Program-made: the position numbers and the translations under genes
Assembly (NCBI GenBank): GCA_032595675.1
Contig: JAVQMD010000001.1
Span: 1,086,640 to 1,150,639 of the forward strand
Origin: Candidatus Electrothrix rattekaaiensis
Lineage (GTDB): Bacteria; Desulfobacterota; Desulfobulbia; Desulfobulbales; Desulfobulbaceae
Length of the DNA stretch: 64,000 nt
Reading direction: 5' to 3'
Shown here: piece after piece, positions 5,789 through 44,130 of the stretch
Layout of the letters: each line of letters opens with the position of its first letter
Position numbering within the stretch: the first letter of the stretch is position 1
The notes under the pieces: generated by a model
What the model was told of the DNA's origin: nothing
Databases searched by the model: none
The model's input: only the letters and a program-made list of their open reading frames with translations

Positions 5789-5899
5789 GCAGGTAACCCG
5801 GCGGTCTCCTCTCGGAGATCCGTGGCTTTCCGACACCGCCTCACGACGGCTGTGGCTTTTTCAACTTTCCTTTTCCGACCGGAAAGTCAAGGCACCTGC
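5789..5899 (-). promoter_or_regulatory. c-di-GMP-I (GEMM-I)-like riboswitch in the RHS leader
   Basis: Read on the minus strand, GCAGGT (5899-5894) pairs with ACCTGC (5794-5789) as an outer stem. Inside is a hairpin closed by a GTGA tetraloop (CCGTC-GTGA-GGCGG), then GGAAAGCCACGG, a second stem (GATCTCC-GAGA-GGAGACC) and the 3' signature GCCGGGTTACC. AAAGCC between two GNRA-capped stems plus a 3' GGGTTACC matches the GEMM-I consensus. An additional hairpin (ACTTTCC/GGAAAGT) sits between the outer stem and P2, which the canonical form lacks. The element ends 28 nt before the ATG with no terminator, so control of translation is more likely than attenuation (inference). Whether the ligand is c-di-GMP or cGAMP cannot be told. 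Confidence 0.7.
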
Positions 5900-33612: not shown

Positions 33613-33688
<76 letters not shown>

Positions 33689-33901
33689 ATATATATAGGG
33701 ACTTAGCTTGTATTGAGCTGAGTCCCTTTTTTATTTTTATCTTTCCAGCCCCCACACTGCCCCCACTTTTTCGGTTATGGGGGCAAGATTTCTGTCTTGA
33801 AAAGATACCAGACGGGGTATTTTTTTTCATCCACTGAAGAACCATTGACACGCCTACCCGCTCCTGTTTATCCTCCCCTGAAAAAATATCCTCTATGCGT
33901 T

Positions 33902-33944
33902 GCCGGAGACCTCTTTCAATTTCTCCCGGCAATAATAACGAGGC
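33902..33944. repeat. Hairpin repeat, copy 1 (near the tRNA)
   Basis: GCCGGAGA and TCTCCCGGC pair around a 12-nt loop. The sequence aligns with 35582-35625 over about 43 nt, sharing CCGGAGA and AATTTCTCCCGGCA...TAA. The two copies are direct repeats on either side of the DUF3800 gene and the structured leader. A dispersed palindromic repeat is the likeliest reading. Confidence 0.55.
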
Positions 33945-33974: not shown

Positions 33975-34619
33975 ATGAGCAACGGCTGTTTATACATCTT
34001 TCTTGATGAAGGGGGGAACCTGGATTTTGCTGCATCCGGGACAAAGTATTTCACCCTGACAAGTGTTTGTACCAAACGCCCCTTCACCGTCTGCCATGAA
34101 TTGGGAAAATACAAGTTCGACCTGATCGAATACGGGTTTGACTTTTCTTATTTCCACTGCACCAAAGACAACCGGCATGTTCGGCAGCGGGTGTTCGGGA
34201 TCATCAAGGAGAATATTGCAGGTTTGCGGGTGGATTCGCTCATAGTGGAGAAAAGCAGGACGGCCCCGGCCTTGCAGGCTCCTGAAGAATTTTACCCCCG
34301 GATGTTGGGACATCTGATCCGGCATGTGGCGGAACAGAAGCGGGAAGAGCTGGCCGGAATGAAAGAGCTGATCGTGATTACCGACACCATACCGATAAAG
34401 AAGAAACGGGCTGCTGTGGAAAAGGGGGTCAAGACGGTGCTGAAAAAAATGCTCCCTTCAGGCTGCCGGTTCCGGGTGCTGCATCATGCCTCAATGTCAA
34501 ATATGGGGTTACAGCTTGCGGATTATTGCAACTGGGCGATATTCAGAAAATGGGAATCTGGGGACAGTGTTTTCTATGATGCGTTGCGGGAAGGGATAAA
34601 GAGCGAGCTGGAGATATAA
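33975..34619 (+). CDS. DUF3800 protein (RNase H-like fold)
   Basis: 214 aa. LYIFLDEGGNLDF at the N-terminus carries the conserved DE(S/G)G motif. The C-terminal MSNMGLQLADYCNWAIFRK matches the NxGLQxADxxxW signature of DUF3800. With a central VITDTIPIKKKRA these acidic residues would form an RNase H-like metal site. The activity of the family is unproven, and members are frequent in mobile and defence regions. AAGGA lies 5 nt before the ATG. The gene stands behind tRNA-Lys, a common insertion site, flanked by the hairpin repeats. No mobile-element genes accompany it. Confidence 0.82.
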   Translation: MSNGCLYIFLDEGGNLDFAASGTKYFTLTSVCTKRPFTVCHELGKYKFDLIEYGFDFSYFHCTKDNRHVRQRVFGIIKENIAGLRVDSLIVEKSRTAPALQAPEEFYPRMLGHLIRHVAEQKREELAGMKELIVITDTIPIKKKRAAVEKGVKTVLKKMLPSGCRFRVLHHASMSNMGLQLADYCNWAIFRKWESGDSVFYDALREGIKSELEI

Positions 34620-34695: not shown

Positions 34696-35022
34696 ATCAT
34701 CAGGGAGGAACCTTTCTACTCATATATTAAGCTGTTCATGCAGAGATGTAAAGAGTTTTTCACCCGCGCTTCAAACCTGAAACCAAGTGGATATATAGCG
34801 CGTTTCCCCTATAGAAAGAGTTTTCCTCCTTCATCTCCTTCATCTCCTTCATGTCCTTCAGTATCAGAAAGTTATCCTTCATTCAGGTCTTCATGCCCTC
34901 CTTCAGTCCTTCACTCCCTGCTCTTGATAACAGGGGATAGAGAGTTATCTATATTTTTGTTGACCACAGCTCGTTCCCCCTGTAATTTATTCATTGCCTG
35001 CGGCAAAATCCGTGGGCCGGGA

Positions 35023-35212
35023 TTGCAAGCCCGACCACTAAGAGGACATCCGCTTTTTCATTATGCACAGGCGGTATTGTGTCCTATTTTCAGCGTATTC
35101 TCTTTGGCTGTTGAGTGGGAGACCTCCGGGTCTGCCGTTCTTAGTGGCGGTCTTGCAACCTGCTTAACAGCCATTTTTCGTTTGCAAGCGAAGGATGGTG
35201 AAGCATTTTCAC
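35023..35212 (+). ncRNA. Candidate structured leader RNA with competing stems
   Basis: TTGCAAGC.CGACCACTAAG at 35023-35042 is nearly complementary to CTTAGTGGCGGTCTTGCAA at 35140-35158. Between them AGGACA..CCGC pairs with GCGG...TGTCCT. An exclusive alternative is a multibranch fold: GGCTGTT (35106-35112) with AACAGCC (35166-35172), enclosing AGACC/GGTCT and GCC/GGC stems. Hairpins CCAT-TT-TTCG...CGAA-GG-ATGG (35171-35198) and GTGAA/TTCAC (35198-35212) follow, the last directly before the AAGGAG of a leader ORF. It matches no riboswitch class I know. The wider 34620-35227 stretch also has a (CCTTCATct)n-like run at about 34828-34922. Confidence 0.45.
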
Positions 35213-35227
35213 TAAGGAGACCCCACC

Positions 35228-35305
35228 ATGAAAGATCTCTCAGCACAGCCCACCGTCACGAATTCCAGAATGACCCGTTCGGAGATGCAGGAGGCCGCAG
35301 CATGA
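35228..35305 (+). CDS. 25-aa leader peptide coupled to the next gene
   Basis: An ATG at 35228 stands 8 nt after AAGGAG and opens MKDLSAQPTVTNSRMTRSEM QEAAA, ending at TGA 35303-35305. That stop overlaps the ATG of the next gene (ATGA at 35302). The peptide shows no run of a single amino acid, so classical attenuation is not obvious. Coupling by reinitiation is the simple reading. Confidence 0.5.
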   Translation: MKDLSAQPTVTNSRMTRSEMQEAAA

Positions 35306-35526
35306 AGAAAGATAAGGACAACACGGCCCCCAAAGAAGCAGAACAGGAACATATTGAAGACATCCTGCTTGAACTTTTCGTTTTTTCCGCTTCTCTGGGA
35401 TTTATCGGCAGATTACTGATTGATGCGGATCGGACATGCGATACCGTTCTGGCCGGAAAAATTGTCGATCATTACACCGGCCTTATATCCGACGGACTGA
35501 CCCGGCTTCAGGCGGAATTGCATTAA
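35302..35526 (+). CDS. Small 74-aa hypothetical protein
   Basis: The ATG at 35302 follows AGGAGG at 7 nt, an excellent ribosome site inside the leader ORF. The product has a charged N-terminus (MKKDKDNTAPKEAEQEH). A predicted amphipathic-helical body follows (IEDILLELFVFSASLGFIGRLLIDADRTCD, then KIVDHYTGLISDGLTRLQAEL), with no full membrane helix and one Cys. I recognise no family. A longer frame opens at 34738, but its upstream part lies in the structured leader and lacks a ribosome site, so I take only this portion as real. It stands alone between two hairpin repeats. Confidence 0.6.
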   Translation: MKKDKDNTAPKEAEQEHIEDILLELFVFSASLGFIGRLLIDADRTCDTVLAGKIVDHYTGLISDGLTRLQAELH

Positions 35527-35581
35527 TATATCGGTAACGAAAAATCGTTTTCTTTTAGGAAGAAAGTGCCCCATGCAATCT

Positions 35582-35625
35582 CCGGAGAACCTATAAAAAT
35601 TTCTCCCGGCAGTAACATGGGGCGT
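35582..35625. repeat. Hairpin repeat, copy 2
   Basis: CCGGAGAA and TTCTCCCGG pair around an A-rich loop. Outside them GCCCCATG (from about 35568) pairs with CATGGGGC (to 35625), giving a nested palindrome. It aligns with copy 1 at 33902-33944. It may also end transcription of the 74-aa gene. Confidence 0.55.
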
Positions 35626-35933: not shown

Positions 35934-38159
35934 ATGCAAAAAACAAAAGCGTTGATCATGGCGGGAATGGCTTTTCTTATGATTTGCACCACCCATCTCT
36001 TTCTCGGTTTCGGGAGAGATATCGCAAAAGCAGCTGATCAGGCCATTCTGGCTCAAATGCAACCCATCTCATCATCTTCAACAGGGATCAATCTGGTGCA
36101 GGCCGCTTCGCCTGGAAAATCCTCCTGGAAAGGCCGTATGCAAGCTGGGGTGCGCAGTCGGGCAATACTGCTGAATCCCCAGATCCAGAATAAGAAGCCT
36201 TTACCCCAAGGAACGAAGTTGGTCACGCATCTGTTCGATGATGTTGAGATCGAATCAAAGGTGTTGAAATCGATGCGTAATATCAATGGAGTTACAACAA
36301 CTACAGCAAAAGTCGTAGGCTCCCAATGGGGAAGGGTGTTTATTGCGGAATCCAATGGGCAGGTCCGAGTCAAAATACTGGCACCGGAGCAAGGGAAAAT
36401 TTTTTCGATTCAATACAACAGTGCTGATGGCCTCCATTATGCCTTAGAGCTGGACCCTCAATTGCTTAAAGTTGATGAAGAAGATGTTGTCCAACCTGAT
36501 CCAGATTTATTAATCAATGGGGAAGAGAGCATCTACCAGATGATGAATAATCTCTCTGTAGAGGAGGATGAGAGCACAGATGCAACCACAGTGGTGGATG
36601 TCATGGTCGTCTACTCCAATGATGCTTTAACATACGCTGGTAGTGTCGATGAGATGAACAATATCATAGCGTTGGGAATGGCTATGGCAAAGGATGCACA
36701 TGAGAATACCAATACAGGTATATTCCTCCACTTGGTTCATTCCGCCCAGGTGAATTACACGGGTTCTGGAAGTCGCTCAACTGATTTAGCACGCTTAGCT
36801 AATGTCAGTGATGGGTATCTGGATGAGGTGCATACGCTGAGAGATAGCTATGGAGCTGATTTTGTCTCCTTCATGCTAGGTGATTATTCTTCTAACGGTG
36901 GTACATCCTACCTCTTAATCTCTTCTGCCGGTGATGCCCCTTTGGCCTTTAGTGTGATCACTGGTCCGGTTTTCGACAGTTATACTCCTGTCCATGAAAT
37001 TGGCCATAATATGGGGCTGAGTCATGCAAAAGATCAGAACTATCAGCCAGGGCCGACCTCCTGGTTTACAGATAATTACAACTTTGGCGACAGTTCAGCT
37101 GGCTGGCATTGGCATCCTGTAGCAGGTGAAAAGGGAAAAAGTAGCATCATGGCCTATACGAGTGGAAGTTATTACTCTGATGGATTAAGCCACACAAGGG
37201 TGGGGCTGTTTTCTGATCCTAACATCAGCTATGAGGGGTTTTCTAGCGGTCATATAAATGATGGATACAATGCCTTGGTCTTACGTTCATTGAAAAATGT
37301 CTATGCCAGCTACAGGCATCGTCCCATCGCAGCGAATTCCATTGTAGTAGATTATCCCAATGGCGGTGAAAGCTGGGCAGCAGGCAGCACACAGGATATT
37401 CAATGGGATTCCAATGGAGTGTCAGGGAATGTAAAAATCGAGCTGTTCAATAATGGGAGTCTGGATCAGGTCATTGCTGCGAATACATTGAATGACCGTG
37501 TTTATTCCTGGACCCTGCCGACCGACGCAAGCAGTGAAAATTATACCATACGTATTAGCAGTCTTGATGGCTCTATTTCGGACACCAGTGATGCTGTTTT
37601 TTCCATTAAATCTGTCATATATGATCACAATATGGGCATTGATCCCGGATACTCTACAGAGAGTGAGTGGGAATTAGGGGTACCTGGTGGGGGTAATCCA
37701 ACCTATGGTGGGGCTGATTCTGCTTATACAGGAACCAATGTCTATGATACCGATCTGGACGCTGGCATGCATACAACTGGTTACTTAACATCCACGGCCT
37801 TTGACTGCAGCGAGTATGAGGATGTAGAGCTTTCTTTTATGGGATGGTTTTCTGTGACGAGCGGATATAATGCAACCGTTGAGGTTTCAAATGATAATAT
37901 TAATTGGAATACCCTTTCTTCTGTATCTGATGTATGGGCAACTGGTTGGCAAGAATATACTTTTGATATTTCAAGCTATGCGGATGAGCAATCAACAGTC
38001 TATGTGCGCTGGGGTCATGTTTCCTCGACAGGCGGTTCTAATTACAGCGGAATGTCAGTGGATGATGTCAAAATTATAGGGATAAAGAAAACAACAAGTG
38101 TGGCACCCTCCACAGGAAGTATTGTTCCTGTGCTCTTTATGTTGCTGTCAAACTCATAA
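35934..38159 (+). CDS. Secreted M12B/reprolysin-like metalloprotease with KNH-like and C-terminal beta domains
   Basis: 741 aa. A signal peptide (about 1-33) leads to a propeptide-like region to about 220. The peptidase domain (about 220-465) has VHEIGHNMGLSHAKD, the HExxHxxGxxH zinc site (His354, His358, His364), followed by SIMAYTS with the Met-turn. A Kre9/KNH-like domain follows (about 475-560: VDYPNGGESWAAGSTQDIQW). Next is a MAM/jelly-roll-like domain (about 565-715) ending YSGMSVDDVKIIGI. The final 20 residues are hydrophobic (SIVPVLFMLLSNS). The protein is expected outside the cell or on its surface. The KNH-like domain also opens the RHS protein at 652-5760. AGGAGGGG precedes the ATG. 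Confidence 0.85.
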   Translation: MQKTKALIMAGMAFLMICTTHLFLGFGRDIAKAADQAILAQMQPISSSSTGINLVQAASPGKSSWKGRMQAGVRSRAILLNPQIQNKKPLPQGTKLVTHLFDDVEIESKVLKSMRNINGVTTTTAKVVGSQWGRVFIAESNGQVRVKILAPEQGKIFSIQYNSADGLHYALELDPQLLKVDEEDVVQPDPDLLINGEESIYQMMNNLSVEEDESTDATTVVDVMVVYSNDALTYAGSVDEMNNIIALGMAMAKDAHENTNTGIFLHLVHSAQVNYTGSGSRSTDLARLANVSDGYLDEVHTLRDSYGADFVSFMLGDYSSNGGTSYLLISSAGDAPLAFSVITGPVFDSYTPVHEIGHNMGLSHAKDQNYQPGPTSWFTDNYNFGDSSAGWHWHPVAGEKGKSSIMAYTSGSYYSDGLSHTRVGLFSDPNISYEGFSSGHINDGYNALVLRSLKNVYASYRHRPIAANSIVVDYPNGGESWAAGSTQDIQWDSNGVSGNVKIELFNNGSLDQVIAANTLNDRVYSWTLPTDASSENYTIRISSLDGSISDTSDAVFSIKSVIYDHNMGIDPGYSTESEWELGVPGGGNPTYGGADSAYTGTNVYDTDLDAGMHTTGYLTSTAFDCSEYEDVELSFMGWFSVTSGYNATVEVSNDNINWNTLSSVSDVWATGWQEYTFDISSYADEQSTVYVRWGHVSSTGGSNYSGMSVDDVKIIGIKKTTSVAPSTGSIVPVLFMLLSNS

Positions 38160-38318: not shown

Positions 38319-40844
38319 ATGTACAGTGGTCCGAAAAAAGAAAAGCCGAGTTTACGAGAAGGCGAGCAAGGAAAAAAGGAGCCGAGCCGCAGTATGCGTG
38401 AGATCAATAAGCATGACATCGATAAGCGTGACATGGACAAGAAAGAACTCAGCGAAACAGATATCTGCGACCAGTTCATCACCCCGGCCCTCAAGCAGAG
38501 CGGATGGAATCAGCACCGCCAGATCCGTCGCGAATATTCGCTCACACCGGGGCCGATCATTGTCCGGGGCAATATGTCGGTGCGCAATAAGAAGAAACGG
38601 AAATTTGCGGATTACGTGCTTTCCTATGAACCGGGCGTGCCCGTGGCCGTGATCGAGGCCAAGAAGAACACCCACACCGTCAGTCATGGTCTCCAACAGG
38701 CCCTGGGCTATGCCGAGATCCTGGATGTCCCCAGCGTGTTCAGCTCCAACGGCGACGCCTTTGCCAGCCACAACAGGGCTGCTGAGCCGGGGCAGGAGAT
38801 TGAGAGCCAATTCTCGCTTGCTGATTTCCCTACCCCCCAAGAGCTTTGGCAAGGCTATAGAGCCTATCGCGGCATCCAGGACAGCAACGACAGCCAGGAG
38901 AGCAGCGACCAACTCTTGCTTCAGCCCTATCACACAGATGGCACCGACAAGGAACCGCGTTATTATCAGATCGAGGCCATCAACCGGGTGATGGAGGCAG
39001 TGGTCAAGGGACAGCAACGGATGCTCCTGGTCATGGCCACGGGCACCGGCAAAACCTACACCACTTTTCAGATCATCTGGCGGCTGTGGAAGGCAGGAAA
39101 GGCCCGGCGTATCCTCTTTCTTGTGGATCGCAATATCCTGGCTGATCAAACCCTAGTTAATGATTTCAAGCCCTTTGGCTCGGTCATGACCAAGGTGAAG
39201 AACCGGACCTTTGATCCGGCCTATGAGATCCACCTAGCCTTGTATCAGGCTATAAGTGGTCCAGAGGAGGCAGATAAGATCTACAAAAATCTTTCCCGTG
39301 ATTTCTTTGATCTGATCGTCATTGACGAGTGCCACCGGGGCAGCGCAGCCGAGGATTCCGATTGGCGGGAGATCCTGGATTATTTCTCCTCAGCTGTGCA
39401 GCTGGGTCTGACCGCCACCCCCAAAGAGACCAAGTATGTCTCCAATATGAGCTATTTCGGTGAGCCCGTGTATACCTACAGCCTCAAGCAGGGCATTGAA
39501 GACGGCTTTCTGGCCCCCTACAAGGTAATCCGTATCCATATTGATAAGGATATCGAGGGCTGGCAGCCTGCTGCGGGCCTGCGGGATGACCTGGGCAAGG
39601 AGGTGGAAAGCCGGGTCTATGATCGCAAGGACATGGACCGCATCCTGGTTCTGGAACGACGGACCAAGCTGGTGGCCCGCCGGGTCATGGCCTTTCTCAG
39701 GGCCACCGATCCTATGGCCAAGACCATCATCTTTTGCGAAGACATTGACCATGCCGAGCGGATGCGGTCGGCCATCGTCAACGAGGCTGGTCAGCTGGCC
39801 CTGGATAATCCCAAGTACGTTATGCGCATCACTGGCGATAATCCGGCAGGCAAGGCAGAGCTGGATAATTTCATTGATCCGGAAAGCCCGTATCCGGTCA
39901 TTGCCACCACCTCGGAACTCATGTCCACGGGCGTGGATGCCAAGACCTGTAAGCTCATCGTGCTGGATAAATCCATCAAGTCCATGACCATGTTCAAACA
40001 GATCATCGGGCGGGGCACCCGCATTGATGAAGAGCATAACAAGTTCTTTTTCACGATCATGGATTTTAAGAACGCCACCGCCCTGTTCCGTGATCCTGCC
40101 TTTGATGGCGACCCCGTGGATATCTATGAGCCCGGCCCTGATGATCCCCCGCTTCCTCCTGAGTCTCTTGAGTCTCTTGAGTCTCCTGATCAGCCGGAGC
40201 CTGCTCCTTATGGGGACGGAGATGATCGTGATGATTCTTCCGGGACAGCAGAATCGAGAAAAATATATATCAGGGGGGTGTCTGTCCGCATTCTTACCGA
40301 GCGGGTGGAGTACATCGGCCCGGACGGCATCTTGATAACAGAATCCTATCGTGCATTCAGCCGCAAGCAGATCCGGTCCGAGTTTGCCTCTCTGGATGAT
40401 TTTCTCCAGCACTGGCAGAGTGCGGAAAAGAAAAAGATCGTGCTGGAGCTGCTGGAGGAGCAGGGCGTGGTCCTGGAGAATCTGGCCGCTGAGGTGGGGC
40501 AGGAGTATGGTGCATTCGACCTTATCTGTCATATCGTCTTTGATCAGCCGCCCCTGACCCGTAAAGAACGGGCTGAGCAGGTGAAAAAACGCGATTATTT
40601 CACCAAATACGGTGAACAGGCACGAGCAGTCCTGAACAATCTGCTGGATCAATACGCTGATACGGGCATCTGCTCCATTGAGCATAATAACATCCTGAAA
40701 ATGAAACCCTTTAACGAAATAGGCACCCCCTTGGAAATTATCAATCAGGTCTTTGGCGGCAAGAACCTGTACCGCCAAGCCCTTGTGGAATTGGAAAAAC
40801 AACTGTATCTGCATTCTTTGGATTCTCTGGAGAAAAGCGCATGA
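38319..40844 (+). CDS. hsdR: Type I restriction enzyme, R subunit (HsdR, EcoEI-type)
   Basis: 841 aa from the ATG at 38319. ATGs at 38394 (AGGAG 12 nt upstream) and 38433 are plausible later starts, because homologues begin near ELSETDICDQFITPALKQSGW. The nuclease core is FADYVLSYEPGVPVAVIEAKK. The translocase has Walker A MATGTGKT (about 239-246), a DECH box, TATP and IIGRGTRID. The C-terminal part (from about 680) is of the EcoEI_R_C type. The subunit translocates DNA with ATP and cuts it away from the recognition site. A tandem Leu/Ser/Glu run (SLESLESLESP near 620) marks a linker. The stop overlaps hsdM by 4 nt. Confidence 0.92.
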   Translation: MYSGPKKEKPSLREGEQGKKEPSRSMREINKHDIDKRDMDKKELSETDICDQFITPALKQSGWNQHRQIRREYSLTPGPIIVRGNMSVRNKKKRKFADYVLSYEPGVPVAVIEAKKNTHTVSHGLQQALGYAEILDVPSVFSSNGDAFASHNRAAEPGQEIESQFSLADFPTPQELWQGYRAYRGIQDSNDSQESSDQLLLQPYHTDGTDKEPRYYQIEAINRVMEAVVKGQQRMLLVMATGTGKTYTTFQIIWRLWKAGKARRILFLVDRNILADQTLVNDFKPFGSVMTKVKNRTFDPAYEIHLALYQAISGPEEADKIYKNLSRDFFDLIVIDECHRGSAAEDSDWREILDYFSSAVQLGLTATPKETKYVSNMSYFGEPVYTYSLKQGIEDGFLAPYKVIRIHIDKDIEGWQPAAGLRDDLGKEVESRVYDRKDMDRILVLERRTKLVARRVMAFLRATDPMAKTIIFCEDIDHAERMRSAIVNEAGQLALDNPKYVMRITGDNPAGKAELDNFIDPESPYPVIATTSELMSTGVDAKTCKLIVLDKSIKSMTMFKQIIGRGTRIDEEHNKFFFTIMDFKNATALFRDPAFDGDPVDIYEPGPDDPPLPPESLESLESPDQPEPAPYGDGDDRDDSSGTAESRKIYIRGVSVRILTERVEYIGPDGILITESYRAFSRKQIRSEFASLDDFLQHWQSAEKKKIVLELLEEQGVVLENLAAEVGQEYGAFDLICHIVFDQPPLTRKERAEQVKKRDYFTKYGEQARAVLNNLLDQYADTGICSIEHNNILKMKPFNEIGTPLEIINQVFGGKNLYRQALVELEKQLYLHSLDSLEKSA

Positions 40845-42370
40845 GCAATGTATCTGGTATCATTAAATCCATTCAGGATATTATGCGCAAGGATGTGGGC
40901 GTGGACGGCGATGCCCAGCGCATCAGTCAGCTGGTCTGGATGTTTTTTCTCAAGATCTTTGATGATCGGGAAGAGGAACTGGAACTCCTGGAAGACGAGT
41001 ATGTCTCGCCCCTGCCCGAGGAGCTGCGCTGGCGTTCCTGGGCCAAGGACCGGGAGGGCATGACCGGGGACGGGTTGTTTGATTTTGTCAATCAACAGCT
41101 TTTTCCGACCCTGAAAGAACTCGGCATCGGCACAACGGGGACAGCGGGTACGCAGCAGGCCGCAGTGGTGCGCAATGTCTTTGCTGATGCCTATAATTAC
41201 ATGAAATCCGGCACCCTGATGCGGCAGGTGATCAACAAGATCTGCGAAATTAATTTCAACAGCCAAGCGGATCGCCACACCTTTGGTGCTATCTATGAGC
41301 AGATCCTCAAGGATTTGCAGAGCGCAGGCAATGCGGGCGAGTTCTACACGCCCAGGGCCGTGACCGAGTTCATCGTCAATCGGGTTGATCCCCGGCTGAA
41401 CGAGACCGTGCTGGACCCGGCCTGCGGTACTGGCGGTTTTCTGGCCTCAGCCATTGAGCATAAACGGGAGCAGTATGTGCGCACCGCCCTTGATGAAGAG
41501 GTTGTGCAGCAGACCATCCACGGGGTGGAAAAGAAATCCCTGCCCCATATGCTCTGCGTCACCAATATGATATTGCACAGCATTGATACCCCGGTCAATA
41601 TCCGCCACGACAACACCCTGACCCGACCCTTGCGGGATTATCGGGAAAAGGATCGGGTCCAGGTTATTATCACCAATCCGCCCTTTGGCGGGGTGGAGGA
41701 AGACGGCATTGAAAATAATTTCCCTACAGACCTGCGCACCCGTGAGACCGCTGACCTGTTCATGACCCTGATCATCCATCTGCTCAAGAAAAAAGGGCGG
41801 GCCGCAGTGGTCCTGCCGGACGGCTTTTTCTTTGGCGAGGGCATGAAGACCCGGCTCAAGGAAAAGCTGCTCAGCCAGTGCAATCTGCACACCATTGTCC
41901 GCCTGCCCAATGGCGTGTTCAATCCTTACACTGGCATCAAGACCAACCTGTTGTTTTTTACCAAGGGCCAGCCCACGGAAACGGTCTGGTACTACGAGCA
42001 TCCCTATCCTCCAGGGGTGAAGAACTATAATAAGACCAAGCCCATGCGTTTTGAGGAGTTTCAGGCGGAGATTGACTGGTGGGGTCAGGAGGCGGATGGC
42101 TTTGCGGCCCGGAAGGAGACCGAACATGCCTGGAAGGTGGGTATTGAGGAGATCAAGGCCCGCAATTATAACCTGGATATCAAGAACCCCCATGTGGGCG
42201 AACAGGTGGTGCATGATCCTGAAAAGCTCCTGGCCGACTATGCGCAGCAGCAGGCGGAGATCAGCGATCTGCGGGCACAGCTCAAGGGGATTTTGTCTGC
42301 GGCCTTGCGTGCGACCGGGACGAATACAACTCAGATGAAGAAAACCCAGACTGACGGGGGTGCGGCTTGA
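40841..42370 (+). CDS. hsdM: Type I DNA methyltransferase, M subunit
   Basis: 509 aa. An N-terminal HsdM_N helical domain (IIKSIQDIMRKDVGVDGDAQRISQLVWMFFLKIFDD) leads to the methylase. Motif I is LDPACGTGGFLASA (Asp near 192) and motif IV is ITNPPFGG. The N6-adenine methyltransferase modifies the host recognition site. FYTPRAVTEFIVNRVDP is the family signature before motif I. The last 50 residues are helical (DYAQQQAEISDLRAQLKGIL) and should dock on HsdS. The ATG at 40841 overlaps the hsdR stop, and hsdS overlaps its stop, so translation of all three is coupled. Confidence 0.94.
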   Translation: MSNVSGIIKSIQDIMRKDVGVDGDAQRISQLVWMFFLKIFDDREEELELLEDEYVSPLPEELRWRSWAKDREGMTGDGLFDFVNQQLFPTLKELGIGTTGTAGTQQAAVVRNVFADAYNYMKSGTLMRQVINKICEINFNSQADRHTFGAIYEQILKDLQSAGNAGEFYTPRAVTEFIVNRVDPRLNETVLDPACGTGGFLASAIEHKREQYVRTALDEEVVQQTIHGVEKKSLPHMLCVTNMILHSIDTPVNIRHDNTLTRPLRDYREKDRVQVIITNPPFGGVEEDGIENNFPTDLRTRETADLFMTLIIHLLKKKGRAAVVLPDGFFFGEGMKTRLKEKLLSQCNLHTIVRLPNGVFNPYTGIKTNLLFFTKGQPTETVWYYEHPYPPGVKNYNKTKPMRFEEFQAEIDWWGQEADGFAARKETEHAWKVGIEEIKARNYNLDIKNPHVGEQVVHDPEKLLADYAQQQAEISDLRAQLKGILSAALRATGTNTTQMKKTQTDGGAA

Positions 42371-44130
42371 GCATGGAAAAGCTGATAAGTGAGCATCTGG
42401 CGACCTGGACCGAGGCCCAAATTGTGACGACCGCAAGCGGTCGGGGCAGGAAGAGCAGCGGGGAGCAGAATCGCTACGGGATTAAGAAGCTGCGGGAGCT
42501 GATTTTGGAGCTGGCTGTGCGGGGTAAGCTGGTGGCGCAGAATCCTGCTGATGAACCTGCTTCGGTGTTGCTGGAGCGGATTGCTGCGGAGAAGGCGAGC
42601 TTGGTTAAGGCTGGGAAGATTAAGAAAAAGAAAGCGTTGTCACCGATTGCTGAGGAGGAAAAGCCGTTTGTATTGCCGAAAAATTGGTACTGGGCAAGAC
42701 TTCAAGATATTGGCCATGATTGGGGGCAAAAAAAGCCGGATGGCGATTTTACCTACATTGAAGTGTCGGGTATTGACAATGCGACAGGAACAATCAAATT
42801 TCCGAAAAAGTTAACGGCAGCAGAGGCACCATCCAGAGCAAGAAAAATAGTTTCAGTTGGAACGGTAATCTACTCTACAGTTCGCCCTTATCTTAAAAAC
42901 ATCTGTGTTATCGAGCAGGAATATCACCCTGAACCAATTGCAAGCACAGCTTTTGCTGTTGTGCATCCATTTCAAAAAATGCCTGGGAAGTTCTTCACGC
43001 TGTATTTGAAGAGTCCTTCCTTTGTCAGCTATGTTGAATCGGTCCAAACTGGAATTGCTTACCCGGCTATCAATGATAAACAGTTTTTTTATGGTGTAAC
43101 TCCAATTCCTCCGCTTGCTGAGCAAAACCGCATAGTCGCCAAGGTCGATGAACTCATGACCCTCTGCGACCGCCTGGAAAAACAACAAACCGACAGCACC
43201 GCAACTCACCAAGCTCTGCTGACTACTCTGCTTGATGCGCTGACAAAATCTGCCAATCATGCGGAATTTGCTACAACTTGGCAACGAATCGCCGAGCATT
43301 TTGATCTCCTGTTCACCACGGATCAATCCATTGACCAGCTCAAGCAGACCATCCTTCAGCTCGCTGTTATGGGGAAACTTGTTCCGCAGAACCCTGACGA
43401 TGAACCGGCCTCTGTGCTGTTGGAAAAGATTGCAGCGGAGAAGGCGCAGTTGGTCAAAGCGGGTAAGATGAAGAAACAGAAGAAGTTGCCGGAGATTGGG
43501 GATGAGGAAAAGCCGTTTGAGTTGCCGGAGGGGTGGGGTTTTGTCAGGCTAGTTGAAATAAGCAAGTTAATCACAAAAGGATCTTCGCCAAAATGGCAAG
43601 GTGTCAATTATACAGAAAAAAAAGAGGGGATTTTGTTTATTACGAGTGAAAATGTTGGAAGATATAAACTGAAATTAGAGAAGAAAAAATATGTTGAGAA
43701 AAAATTTAACGAAGTGGAACCTAGGTCTATTTTGAAAAAAGACGATTTTTTGATGAATATTGTTGGCGCATCTATTGGTCGTACAGCTGTGTACGATATT
43801 GATGAATTGGCTAATATTAATCAGGCGGTTTGCCTCATACGGGTATTTTCTCAATTTATTGATAAAAAATATCTACTTTACTTTTTTAATAGTGAATTTT
43901 GTTTGTCATATATGTTTGACAAGCAAGTTGATAACGCTCGTGCAAATCTCAGTATGGGTAATATTGCTAAATTTTTGATTCCATTCCCTCCGCTCCCCGA
44001 ACAACACCGAATAGTAGCCAAAGTCGATGAACTCATGACCCTCTGCGACACCCTTAAATCCGGTTTACAACAAGCCCAAACCACCCAGGTGCAGCTCGCC
44101 GATGCCCTTGTTGAACAGGCTGTGGCGTAG
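42367..44130 (+). CDS. hsdS: Type I specificity subunit with two target-recognition domains
   Basis: 587 aa from a TTG at 42367 that overlaps the hsdM stop; ATG 42373 is an alternative. Two repeated halves are visible. Each opens with a LR.LILELAV.GKLV.QNP.DEPASVLLE segment, then a variable domain (about 105-245 and 395-545), and each closes with PLPEQ.RIVAKVDELMTLCD. The half-to-half repeat is very close, while the recognition domains differ. The second one (about 43560-43980) is strikingly AT-rich against its surroundings, suggesting exchange by recombination. The recognition sequence cannot be predicted. The TAG stop lies inside a REP palindrome at 44127. Confidence 0.92.
   Translation: MSMEKLISEHLATWTEAQIVTTASGRGRKSSGEQNRYGIKKLRELILELAVRGKLVAQNPADEPASVLLERIAAEKASLVKAGKIKKKKALSPIAEEEKPFVLPKNWYWARLQDIGHDWGQKKPDGDFTYIEVSGIDNATGTIKFPKKLTAAEAPSRARKIVSVGTVIYSTVRPYLKNICVIEQEYHPEPIASTAFAVVHPFQKMPGKFFTLYLKSPSFVSYVESVQTGIAYPAINDKQFFYGVTPIPPLAEQNRIVAKVDELMTLCDRLEKQQTDSTATHQALLTTLLDALTKSANHAEFATTWQRIAEHFDLLFTTDQSIDQLKQTILQLAVMGKLVPQNPDDEPASVLLEKIAAEKAQLVKAGKMKKQKKLPEIGDEEKPFELPEGWGFVRLVEISKLITKGSSPKWQGVNYTEKKEGILFITSENVGRYKLKLEKKKYVEKKFNEVEPRSILKKDDFLMNIVGASIGRTAVYDIDELANINQAVCLIRVFSQFIDKKYLLYFFNSEFCLSYMFDKQVDNARANLSMGNIAKFLIPFPPLPEQHRIVAKVDELMTLCDTLKSGLQQAQTTQVQLADALVEQAVA

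What the first reader, a model, noticed from the sequence alone, without database searches (positions are those of the whole stretch)
34985..35526. Undescribed multi-hairpin leader in front of a 25-aa leader ORF and a 74-aa protein
Directly seen: two mutually exclusive folds. CTTAGTGGCGGTCTTGCAA (35140-35158) can pair with 35023-35042 or take part in a local multibranch fold closed by GGCTGTT/AACAGCC. Two more hairpins follow, the last directly before the AAGGAG of a leader ORF that is coupled (ATGA) to a small protein with its own AGGAGG. Such competing stems next to a ribosome site are typical of cis-regulatory RNAs. I know no class with these motifs. The DNA lies in an accessory patch behind tRNA-Lys, so a mobile-element structure is the other option.
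Basis: partly seen in the sequence, partly recalled or inferred. Interest (0 to 1): 0.72.

Follow-up and report, generated by a model that had tools for sequence, protein, structure and literature searches.

The report
Phage-type C4 antisense RNA leader
The folded leader in this cable-bacterium genome belongs to a known family of phage immunity RNAs (C4 antisense RNA), but here it sits in small tRNA-inserted mobile elements and appears to control an unknown 74-residue protein instead of the usual phage antirepressor.

Summary
The leader belongs to the phage P1/P7 C4 antisense RNA family. Window 35100-35178 matches Rfam C4 (44.0 bits, gathering 45, E 6e-7). The stretch upstream matches c4-a1b1 and isrK, both below their cut-offs.

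Eight copies exist in Candidatus Electrothrix, two in each of 4 of 8 genomes. In all eight, the C4 loops (a', b') are complementary to an upstream copy (a1, b1) and to a downstream copy (a2, b2); b2 overlaps the ribosome site of the leader ORF. Both pairings covary.

A model built from the eight finds 46 more loci in 252 genomes of the order. There, 44 first genes give 24 matches to phage antirepressor domains. Bro-N, pRha and terminase PHROG 2 gave no match in the 8 Electrothrix genomes, four of them fragmented.

Five of the eight copies lie in 11-19 kb elements bounded by 46-67 bp repeats of a tRNA 3' end, with an integrase near the far repeat. The window copy lacks the far repeat.

Most likely mechanism: C4 RNA blocks the leader ORF's ribosome site and so the coupled 74-aa protein, function unknown.

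The parts
33613..33688 (+). tRNA-Lys (CTT); insertion site of the island. In the relative G004 the same tRNA carries an element with both repeats.
   Evidence: ARAGORN; 58-bp direct repeat of this tRNA's 3' end in G004; an exact 25-mer of the tRNA 3' end occurs once in G000, so no far repeat found here
33975..34619 (+). DUF3800 protein; also present between tRNA-Lys and the cassette in G004 and G007, so probably part of the element's left end
   Evidence: Pfam; synteny
34960..34988 (+). promoter-like TTGACC-17 nt-TAATTT, present in all 8 copies
   Evidence: alignment; coordinates; function inferred (the consensus scan did not list it)
34996..35017 (+). first hairpin GCCTGCGG/CCGTGGGC
   Evidence: 64 of 64 pairs in 8 copies
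35023..35029 (+). a1 target element (TTGCAAG), in the loop of hairpin 35018-35033
   Evidence: c4-a1b1 model 34987-35037, 22.4 bits, below cut-off 46.7
35035..35044 (+). b1 target element (CCACTAAGAG)
35044..35084 (+). isrK-like hairpin; in the other 7 Electrothrix copies followed by 5 to 8 T (possible terminator), a run that this copy lacks
   Evidence: isrK model 34996-35058, 31.9 bits, below cut-off 50; alignments
35100..35178 (+). C4 antisense RNA: closing stem 35105-35119/35159-35173, hairpins 35121-35132 and 35134-35151
   Evidence: RF01695 44.0 bits (cut-off 45), E 6.3e-7, full model 1-87
35138..35147 (+). b' loop (TTCTTAGTGG)
35152..35158 (+). a' element (CTTGCAA)
35182..35188 (+). a2 target element (TTGCAAG) at the tip of hairpin 35170-35199
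35209..35218 (+). b2 target element (TCACTAAGGA), overlapping the Shine-Dalgarno sequence AAGGAG 35214-35219
35228..35305 (+). 25-aa leader ORF (25 aa in the four a copies, 38 aa in the four b copies), stop overlapping the next start (ATGA); position of icd/orf45 in phages
35302..35526 (+). 74-aa protein, found only in this genus, predicted two-helix hairpin
   Evidence: no Pfam or NCBIfam match and one non-significant PHROG match, E 0.27
35568..35623 (+). palindrome, also behind the four b copies and at a third place in G000; probable 3' end of the cassette

Best explanation
It is a C4-type antisense RNA immunity leader carried by tRNA-integrating, satellite-like mobile elements of cable bacteria. 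One transcript carries a1b1, then the C4 RNA (loops b' and a'), then a2b2, which overlaps the ribosome site of a short leader ORF coupled to the 74-aa gene. When C4 (processed from the same transcript and acting in trans, or pairing in cis) binds a2b2, the leader ORF and hence the 74-aa protein are off. When C4 is held by a1b1 or titrated, the ribosome site is free. Shown here: family match, anatomy, covariation of both pairings, purifying selection on the protein, the mobile elements. Inferred: processing, trans action, direction of control, translational coupling, and the role of the protein, which takes the place of the antirepressor.
For: Rfam C4 at all 8 Electrothrix copies (40.4-49.2 bits; 3 of 8 over the gathering score 45) and at no other place in the 8 genomes at E <= 0.01. 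Own cells paired: a1/a' 55 of 56, b1/b' 72 of 80, a2/a' 56 of 56, b2/b' 78 of 80; shuffled partners reach this in 51, 27, 47 and 23 of 20000. On the MAFFT alignment the covariation score and the paired cells are reached by 0 of 500 shuffles for both pairings, and sliding the partners destroys them. Model R1 finds 46 further loci in 37 further genomes of the order at E <= 1.5e-9 (252 genomes searched; counted by hand). Of the 26 of these 46 scanned with Rfam, 21 pass C4's cut-off. 24 antirepressor-domain matches among 44 first genes. Five of 8 Electrothrix copies lie between tRNA direct repeats of 46-67 bp with an integrase.
Against: The window copy scores 1 bit below Rfam's C4 cut-off. No antirepressor follows. 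In nested folding the b2/b' helix has probability 0.00 in all 8 copies; even with the 5' copies blocked only G006a forms it (0.79, the others 0.04 or less), so cis pairing alone may not repress. With few independent sequence types, some measures do not beat shuffles: pairs changed on both sides 54 and 12 of 500, further pair types 354 and 52 of 500. The isrK example works in the opposite direction (short RNA activates; PMC4825925, abstract and passages). No expression data.
Confidence: 0.82

Rival explanations
1. A toxin-antitoxin-like module: the 74-aa protein is harmful and the C4 part is its RNA antitoxin, as in hok/sok (recalled) with its coupled leader ORF and competing folds.
For: Overlapping leader ORF and competing folds; paralogues in one genome have different a'/b' in 4 of 4 genomes; some gene translations around the b copies look like toxin-antitoxin pairs, as read by eye; the isrK locus tunes a toxic protein (PMC4825925 abstract).
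Against: Different specificities also fit phage heteroimmunity. The consensus scan of the window copy lists no minus-strand promoter. No significant family match of the 74-aa protein. G007a keeps C4 (49.2 bits) with a broken 74-aa gene, which either view allows.
Confidence: 0.15
2. A purely cis-acting switch (riboswitch or thermosensor) without a separate small RNA.
For: Both pairings are possible in cis; in the nested model, blocking the 5' copies lowers SD accessibility to 0.16 or less in 6 of 8.
Against: Family match to C4, described as a processed antisense RNA (PMC5320573 passages) that acts on ant mRNA (PMC12197685 passages). In the model the SD is mostly closed by other helices than b2/b': blocking a'b' too leaves access about the same in 7 of 8.
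Confidence: 0.1
3. An IsrK-like activator: a short 5' RNA ending at the isrK-like hairpin turns the long transcript on.
For: isrK model hits at all 8 copies (31.9-45.6 bits, below cut-off 50); a run of 5 to 8 T after the hairpin in 7 of 8 copies.
Against: All 8 are below the isrK cut-off; the window copy lacks the T run. In isrK the short RNA pairs with the orf45 region (PMC4825925 passages); such pairing was not tested here.
Confidence: 0.15
4. The window copy is a dead remnant of a mobile element.
For: No second exact copy of the tRNA-Lys 3' 25-mer in G000; T run absent; far side of the element not found.
Against: The a/b pairings are intact. The 74-aa frame is intact, with dN/dS 0.26-0.47 for five of its six comparisons (1.2 for one with few changes).
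Confidence: 0.25

Closest known systems
C4 antisense RNA of phages P1 and P7 (Rfam RF01695, c4-a1b1 RF03163)
   Same: Order a1b1-C4-a2b2, closing stem plus two hairpins with a' and b' displayed, b2 overlapping the ribosome site of a leader ORF overlapping the next gene (details of the P1 immI operon partly recalled)
   Different: The following gene is a 74-aa protein, not an antirepressor; carried by tRNA-integrating elements in genomes without a PHROG 2 terminase match; scores around the curated cut-off
isrK-orf45-anrP of the Gifsy-1 prophage (Rfam RF01394)
   Same: Leader RNA with alternative folds, short leader ORF whose stop overlaps the next start (AUGA) and whose amino acids vary (PMC4825925 passages)
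   Different: Downstream gene not shown to be related; below the isrK cut-off; direction of control unknown here
C4-like Group 1 sRNAs of Acinetobacter baumannii (PMC5320573, passages seen)
   Same: Several C4-type RNAs per genome with divergent a'/b'
   Different: In the passages seen no conserved downstream gene is described; here the leader ORF and the 74-aa gene (one of 8 broken) always follow
P4-like phage satellites, CI RNA with seqA and seqC (PMC4825925 and PMC8628076 passages; lack of terminase and tRNA targeting of P4 recalled)
   Same: Integrative element with integrase at a tRNA, replication genes in some, and an antisense RNA with one target upstream and one downstream
   Different: CI is said to act by transcription termination; P4 core genes were not tested here; no helper phage known

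Membership tests
C4 antisense RNA (RF01695) | Covariance-model score over the curated cut-off (45 bits) | tested here: inconclusive
   Window 44.0 bits, E 6.3e-7, full length; 3 of 8 Electrothrix copies over 45, 5 between 40.4 and 44.6
C4 antisense RNA (RF01695) | Closing stem with two hairpins, b' in a hairpin loop, a' next to the closing stem | tested here: met
   Helices in all 8 copies, hand-picked per sequence; Rfam match covers model positions 1-87
C4 antisense RNA (RF01695) | a', b' complementary to a2, b2 at the ribosome site of the first ORF | tested here: met
   134 of 136 cells paired in 8 copies; covariation
C4 antisense RNA (RF01695) | Upstream a1, b1 copy | tested here: met
   127 of 136 cells paired; covariation. 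By Rfam only weak: RF03163 listed for 5 of 8 copies at 28.3-31.8 bits and for the window at 22.4 bits, all below cut-off 46.7; not listed for G004a and G006a
C4 antisense RNA (RF01695) | Leader ORF translationally coupled to the next gene | tested here: inconclusive
   4-nt overlap ATGA in 8 of 8; coupling itself not testable here
C4 antisense RNA (RF01695) | Controls a phage antirepressor | tested here: not met
   74-aa protein without significant family match; no Bro-N or pRha match in 8 genomes. Other antirepressor families were not searched genome-wide; a new small antirepressor is not excluded
C4 antisense RNA (RF01695) | Processed to a ~77-nt RNA acting in trans | not testable with these tools
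   needs RNA data
isrK (RF01394) | Score over cut-off 50 | tested here: not met
   31.9-45.6 bits in 8 copies
P4-like satellite | Integrase and tRNA att repeats, no terminase | tested here: inconclusive
   Repeats and integrase in 5 of 8 copies and no PHROG 2 match in 8 genomes; far repeat not found for the window copy
P4-like satellite | P4 core genes (psu, delta, sid, alpha, epsilon; recalled) | not tested
   only Prim-Pol and AAA_25 (G004a) and Toprim_3/DUF3987 (G006b, beside G007b) replication genes were seen

The most novel reading that the evidence does not exclude
In cable bacteria, C4 RNA has been taken over by satellite-like elements as a phage sensor: transcripts of an incoming phage that carry matching a/b sequences titrate C4, free the ribosome site and switch on the 74-aa two-helix protein, which then acts on the phage or wakes the element. 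The varied a'/b' pairs would be different phage specificities.
Probability: 0.12. Interest if true: 0.75.

Novelty: new member of a known kind. Interest (0 to 1): 0.42.

Why it matters
It extends a classic phage immunity RNA to cable bacteria and, through the order-wide search, to 37 further genomes of the order (named relatives suggest Desulfobulbales). It ties the RNA to tRNA-integrated elements and shows a natural set of C4 RNAs with different specificities in front of one conserved orphan protein. That makes the protein a direct candidate for a small antirepressor, anti-phage effector or toxin, and makes the element family findable by its RNA.

Tried and rejected
Unknown riboswitch class: rejected after the permissive Rfam scan. 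The first scan at curated cut-offs had missed it by one bit.

A Sok-like antisense promoter: the consensus scan of the window copy lists none on the minus strand; the other copies were only looked at by eye.

Homology of the 74-aa protein to the small 'PADLL' proteins behind antirepressors of the order: profile comparison gave probability 0.5%; rejected. The marginal hit in G052 (E 0.009) is taken as chance.

Structure search in viral models: 212 matches at E <= 10, none at E <= 0.001 (50 shown). A two-helix hairpin is uninformative; the PDB was not searched.

The 74-aa protein in GTDB 220 contigs, IMG/VR, plasmids and phages: no match. IMG/VR for the exact leader core and the four a'b' combinations: 0 hits each; exact patterns only.

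The order-wide pairing test used a regular expression that clearly mislocated the C4 loops in several loci (for example L099, L100, L113, L119, L129) and failed in 2 of 54. Its counts (own partner better than 95% of foreign ones: 5' side 41 of 52, 3' side 31 of 52) are therefore rough, and I lean on the 8 Electrothrix copies instead.

In one search six loci were aligned unoriented; one search repeats it correctly. A phage-gene tally of the flanks shows only 25 of 70 and 25 of 81 families, so I draw no conclusion on missing capsid genes from it.

Full report
WHERE IT IS. The window lies in a Candidatus Electrothrix genome (cable bacteria): its 758-aa carboxylase is 98% identical (best segment) to that of E. 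aarhusensis and 96% to E. marina. The genome handle is G000.

OBSERVATION. The leader, the 25-aa ORF (35228-35305) with AAGGAG 35214-35219, the ATGA overlap and the 74-aa ORF (35302-35526) are as described. The RNA folds at -96.7 kcal/mol against -74.8 +/- 5.3 for shuffles (0 of 200).

HOMOLOGUES. The 74-aa protein is found in 4 of 8 Electrothrix genomes, two copies each. The only other hit in 257 genomes of the order is a marginal one (E 0.009) that I take as chance. The four genomes without it are in 140 to 470 contigs. I name the copies G000a (window), G000b, G004a/b, G006a/b, G007a/b. In G007a the protein frame is cut short by a stop. The other six full-length proteins (73-74 aa) are 78-95% identical to the window's. 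dN/dS is 0.12-0.59 in 20 of 21 pairs and 1.2 in one with few changes, so the protein is real and kept. No Pfam or NCBIfam match and one non-significant PHROG match (E 0.27). AlphaFold2 with 7 sequences gives two helices, 8-44 and 48-73, pLDDT 84, pTM 0.53.

TRIPLE COMPLEMENTARITY. Each leader carries element pair A (a: 7 nt, b: 10 nt) at the 5' side, its complement A' in the middle, and A again at the 3' side, where b overlaps the Shine-Dalgarno sequence. The sequences differ between copies (for example TTGCAAG, TTGGAAG, TTGACAG for a) and the complement changes with them. Cells paired in 8 copies: a1/a' 55 of 56, b1/b' 72 of 80, a2/a' 56 of 56, b2/b' 78 of 80. Random partner assignment reaches this in 51, 27, 47 and 23 of 20000. 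Counting distinct haplotypes only, exact permutations reach it in 2 of 24, 1 of 24, 1 of 6 and 2 of 120, because there are few independent types. On the untouched MAFFT alignment A3 the 5' pairing has 90.8% and the 3' pairing 97.0% paired cells; paired cells and covariation score are reached by 0 of 500 shuffles in both. Partners slid by 1 to 3 columns fall to 23-56% paired. Against this, the number of pairs changed on both sides is reached by 54 and 12 of 500 shuffles and the number of further pair types by 354 and 52 of 500; and the shuffles ignore relatedness. In the four genomes, the two copies always have different a'/b'.

FAMILY. The permissive Rfam scan gives RF01695 C4 antisense RNA at 35100-35178 (44.0 bits, cut-off 45, E 6.3e-7, whole model), RF01394 isrK at 34996-35058 (31.9, cut-off 50) and RF03163 c4-a1b1 at 34987-35037 (22.4, cut-off 46.7). 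Over the 8 copies C4 scores 40.4-49.2; 3 of 8 pass the cut-off. At E <= 0.01 C4 occurs nowhere else in the 8 genomes. Model R1, built from the 8 leaders, finds 54 loci at E <= 1.5e-9 in 41 of 252 genomes of the order (counted by hand from its list), 46 of them outside Electrothrix. Of 26 of these 46 scanned with Rfam, 21 pass the C4 cut-off, 4 are below it and 1 (L097) has no listed C4 match. A first gene could be read by script in 44 of 46, not always reliably; domain matches are pRha 9, Bro-N 9, ORF6N 3, P22_AR_N 2, AntA 1 (one protein may count twice). The rest are mostly small or unknown proteins. So the leader is a C4 immunity region, the position of the 74-aa gene being that of the antirepressor.

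LITERATURE. Weinberg 2010 (PMC2864571, passages) lists c4 antisense RNA and c4-a1b1. PMC12197685 (passages) describes C4 as an antisense RNA that binds ant mRNA around the ribosome site. PMC5320573 (passages) adds the a' and b' loops and processing by RNase P, and reports C4-like sRNAs in A. baumannii. PMC8546580 (passages): c4 represses Ant. PMC4825925 (abstract, outline and passages): isrK-orf45-anrP, with alternative folds and an AUGA-coupled leader ORF, where the short RNA activates. PMC8628076 (passages): P4-like satellites. Searches: Electrothrix with antisense RNA, 0 papers; cable bacteria, Electrothrix and prophage, 1 paper (PMC11976967, passages, nothing on this); cable bacteria and mobile genetic elements, 4 papers (listing only); RF01695 or C4 antisense, 18 papers (listing of 12).

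MOBILE ELEMENTS. Five of 8 copies lie 0.4 to 3.4 kb downstream of a tRNA, in its direction, inside a segment closed by a direct repeat of the tRNA 3' end with a tyrosine integrase near the far repeat: G000b tRNA-Arg, 59 bp, 11.35 kb; G006b tRNA-Arg, 46 bp, 19.35 kb; G004b tRNA-Ala, 54 bp, 11.2 kb; G006a tRNA-Leu, 67 bp, 14.2 kb; G004a tRNA-Lys, 58 bp, 13.6 kb. Pfam Phage_integrase was found for G000b, G004a, G006a and G004b; the G006b integrase is 96% identical to that of G000b. Replication genes: Prim-Pol and AAA_25 in G004a, Toprim_3/DUF3987 in G006b and beside G007b. Terminase PHROG 2, Bro-N and pRha have no match in the 8 genomes, while 6, 4 and 3 of 14 control genomes ring; four of the 8 are fragmented and may hide some, and other terminase or antirepressor families were not searched. 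The window copy shares tRNA-Lys, the DUF3800 gene and the cassette with G004a, but an exact 25-mer of the tRNA end occurs once in G000 and no same-strand exact repeat of at least 14 nt of the tRNA 3' region is in the window. It looks like the left end of an element that lost its right end; the right junction was not found. In E. aarhusensis the homology stops just behind this tRNA, so the site is variable. G007a also has only one such 25-mer. G007b lacks a flanking tRNA in the expected place and is not explained.

MECHANISM. Shown: anatomy and covariation. Inferred: C4, freed from the transcript or in cis, covers a2b2 and so the ribosome site, turning off the coupled 74-aa gene; a1b1 competes for C4. 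Energy models without pseudoknots favour b1/b' (probability 0.47-0.83 in 7 of 8; G004a 0.01), with ribosome-site access 0.29-0.65. Blocking a1b1 lowers access to 0.16 or less in 6 of 8 (G004a stays at 0.29, G007a is 0.59), but through b2/b' only in G006a. I therefore rely on covariation, not on the energies, for the b2/b' contact.

VERDICT. A known RNA family in a new host group and gene setting. The open part is the 74-aa protein.

Noticed in passing
window 5789-5866 (-): c-di-GMP-I riboswitch, 54.2 bits.
   Followed up: no
window 38319-44127: Type I restriction-modification genes follow the cassette; genes read by eye as another type I set lie near G006a (family tallies).
   Followed up: partly
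window 35568-35623, 33860-33930; G000 C1:2357986: Palindrome CTCCGGAGAACC..TTCTCCCGG at the 3' end of the cassette, a similar one near the tRNA (by eye) and a third genomic copy beside genes read by eye as HsdR and transposase.
   Followed up: partly
L089, L090, L093, L095, L096, L100, L102, L103, L104, L106, L121: A 62-75 aa protein (..PADLLDNA..FL..GLxLIL..E..) follows C4-controlled first genes in these 11 loci; its first member has no PHROG match (A4).
   Followed up: partly
L129, L130, L131: In one genome (G241) three C4 leaders precede genes that do not look like antirepressors and may be replication-initiation-like (by eye; tentative).
   Followed up: no
G154 C32:33043 and 39352; G240 C57:45 and 4911: Two C4 leaders within 5-6 kb of each other on one contig.
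   Followed up: no
window 34829-34920: Short imperfect CTTCAT/CTCCTTCA direct repeats just upstream of the promoter region (by eye).
   Followed up: no
window 35934-38159: Large M12B-like metalloprotease gene beside the cassette.
   Followed up: no
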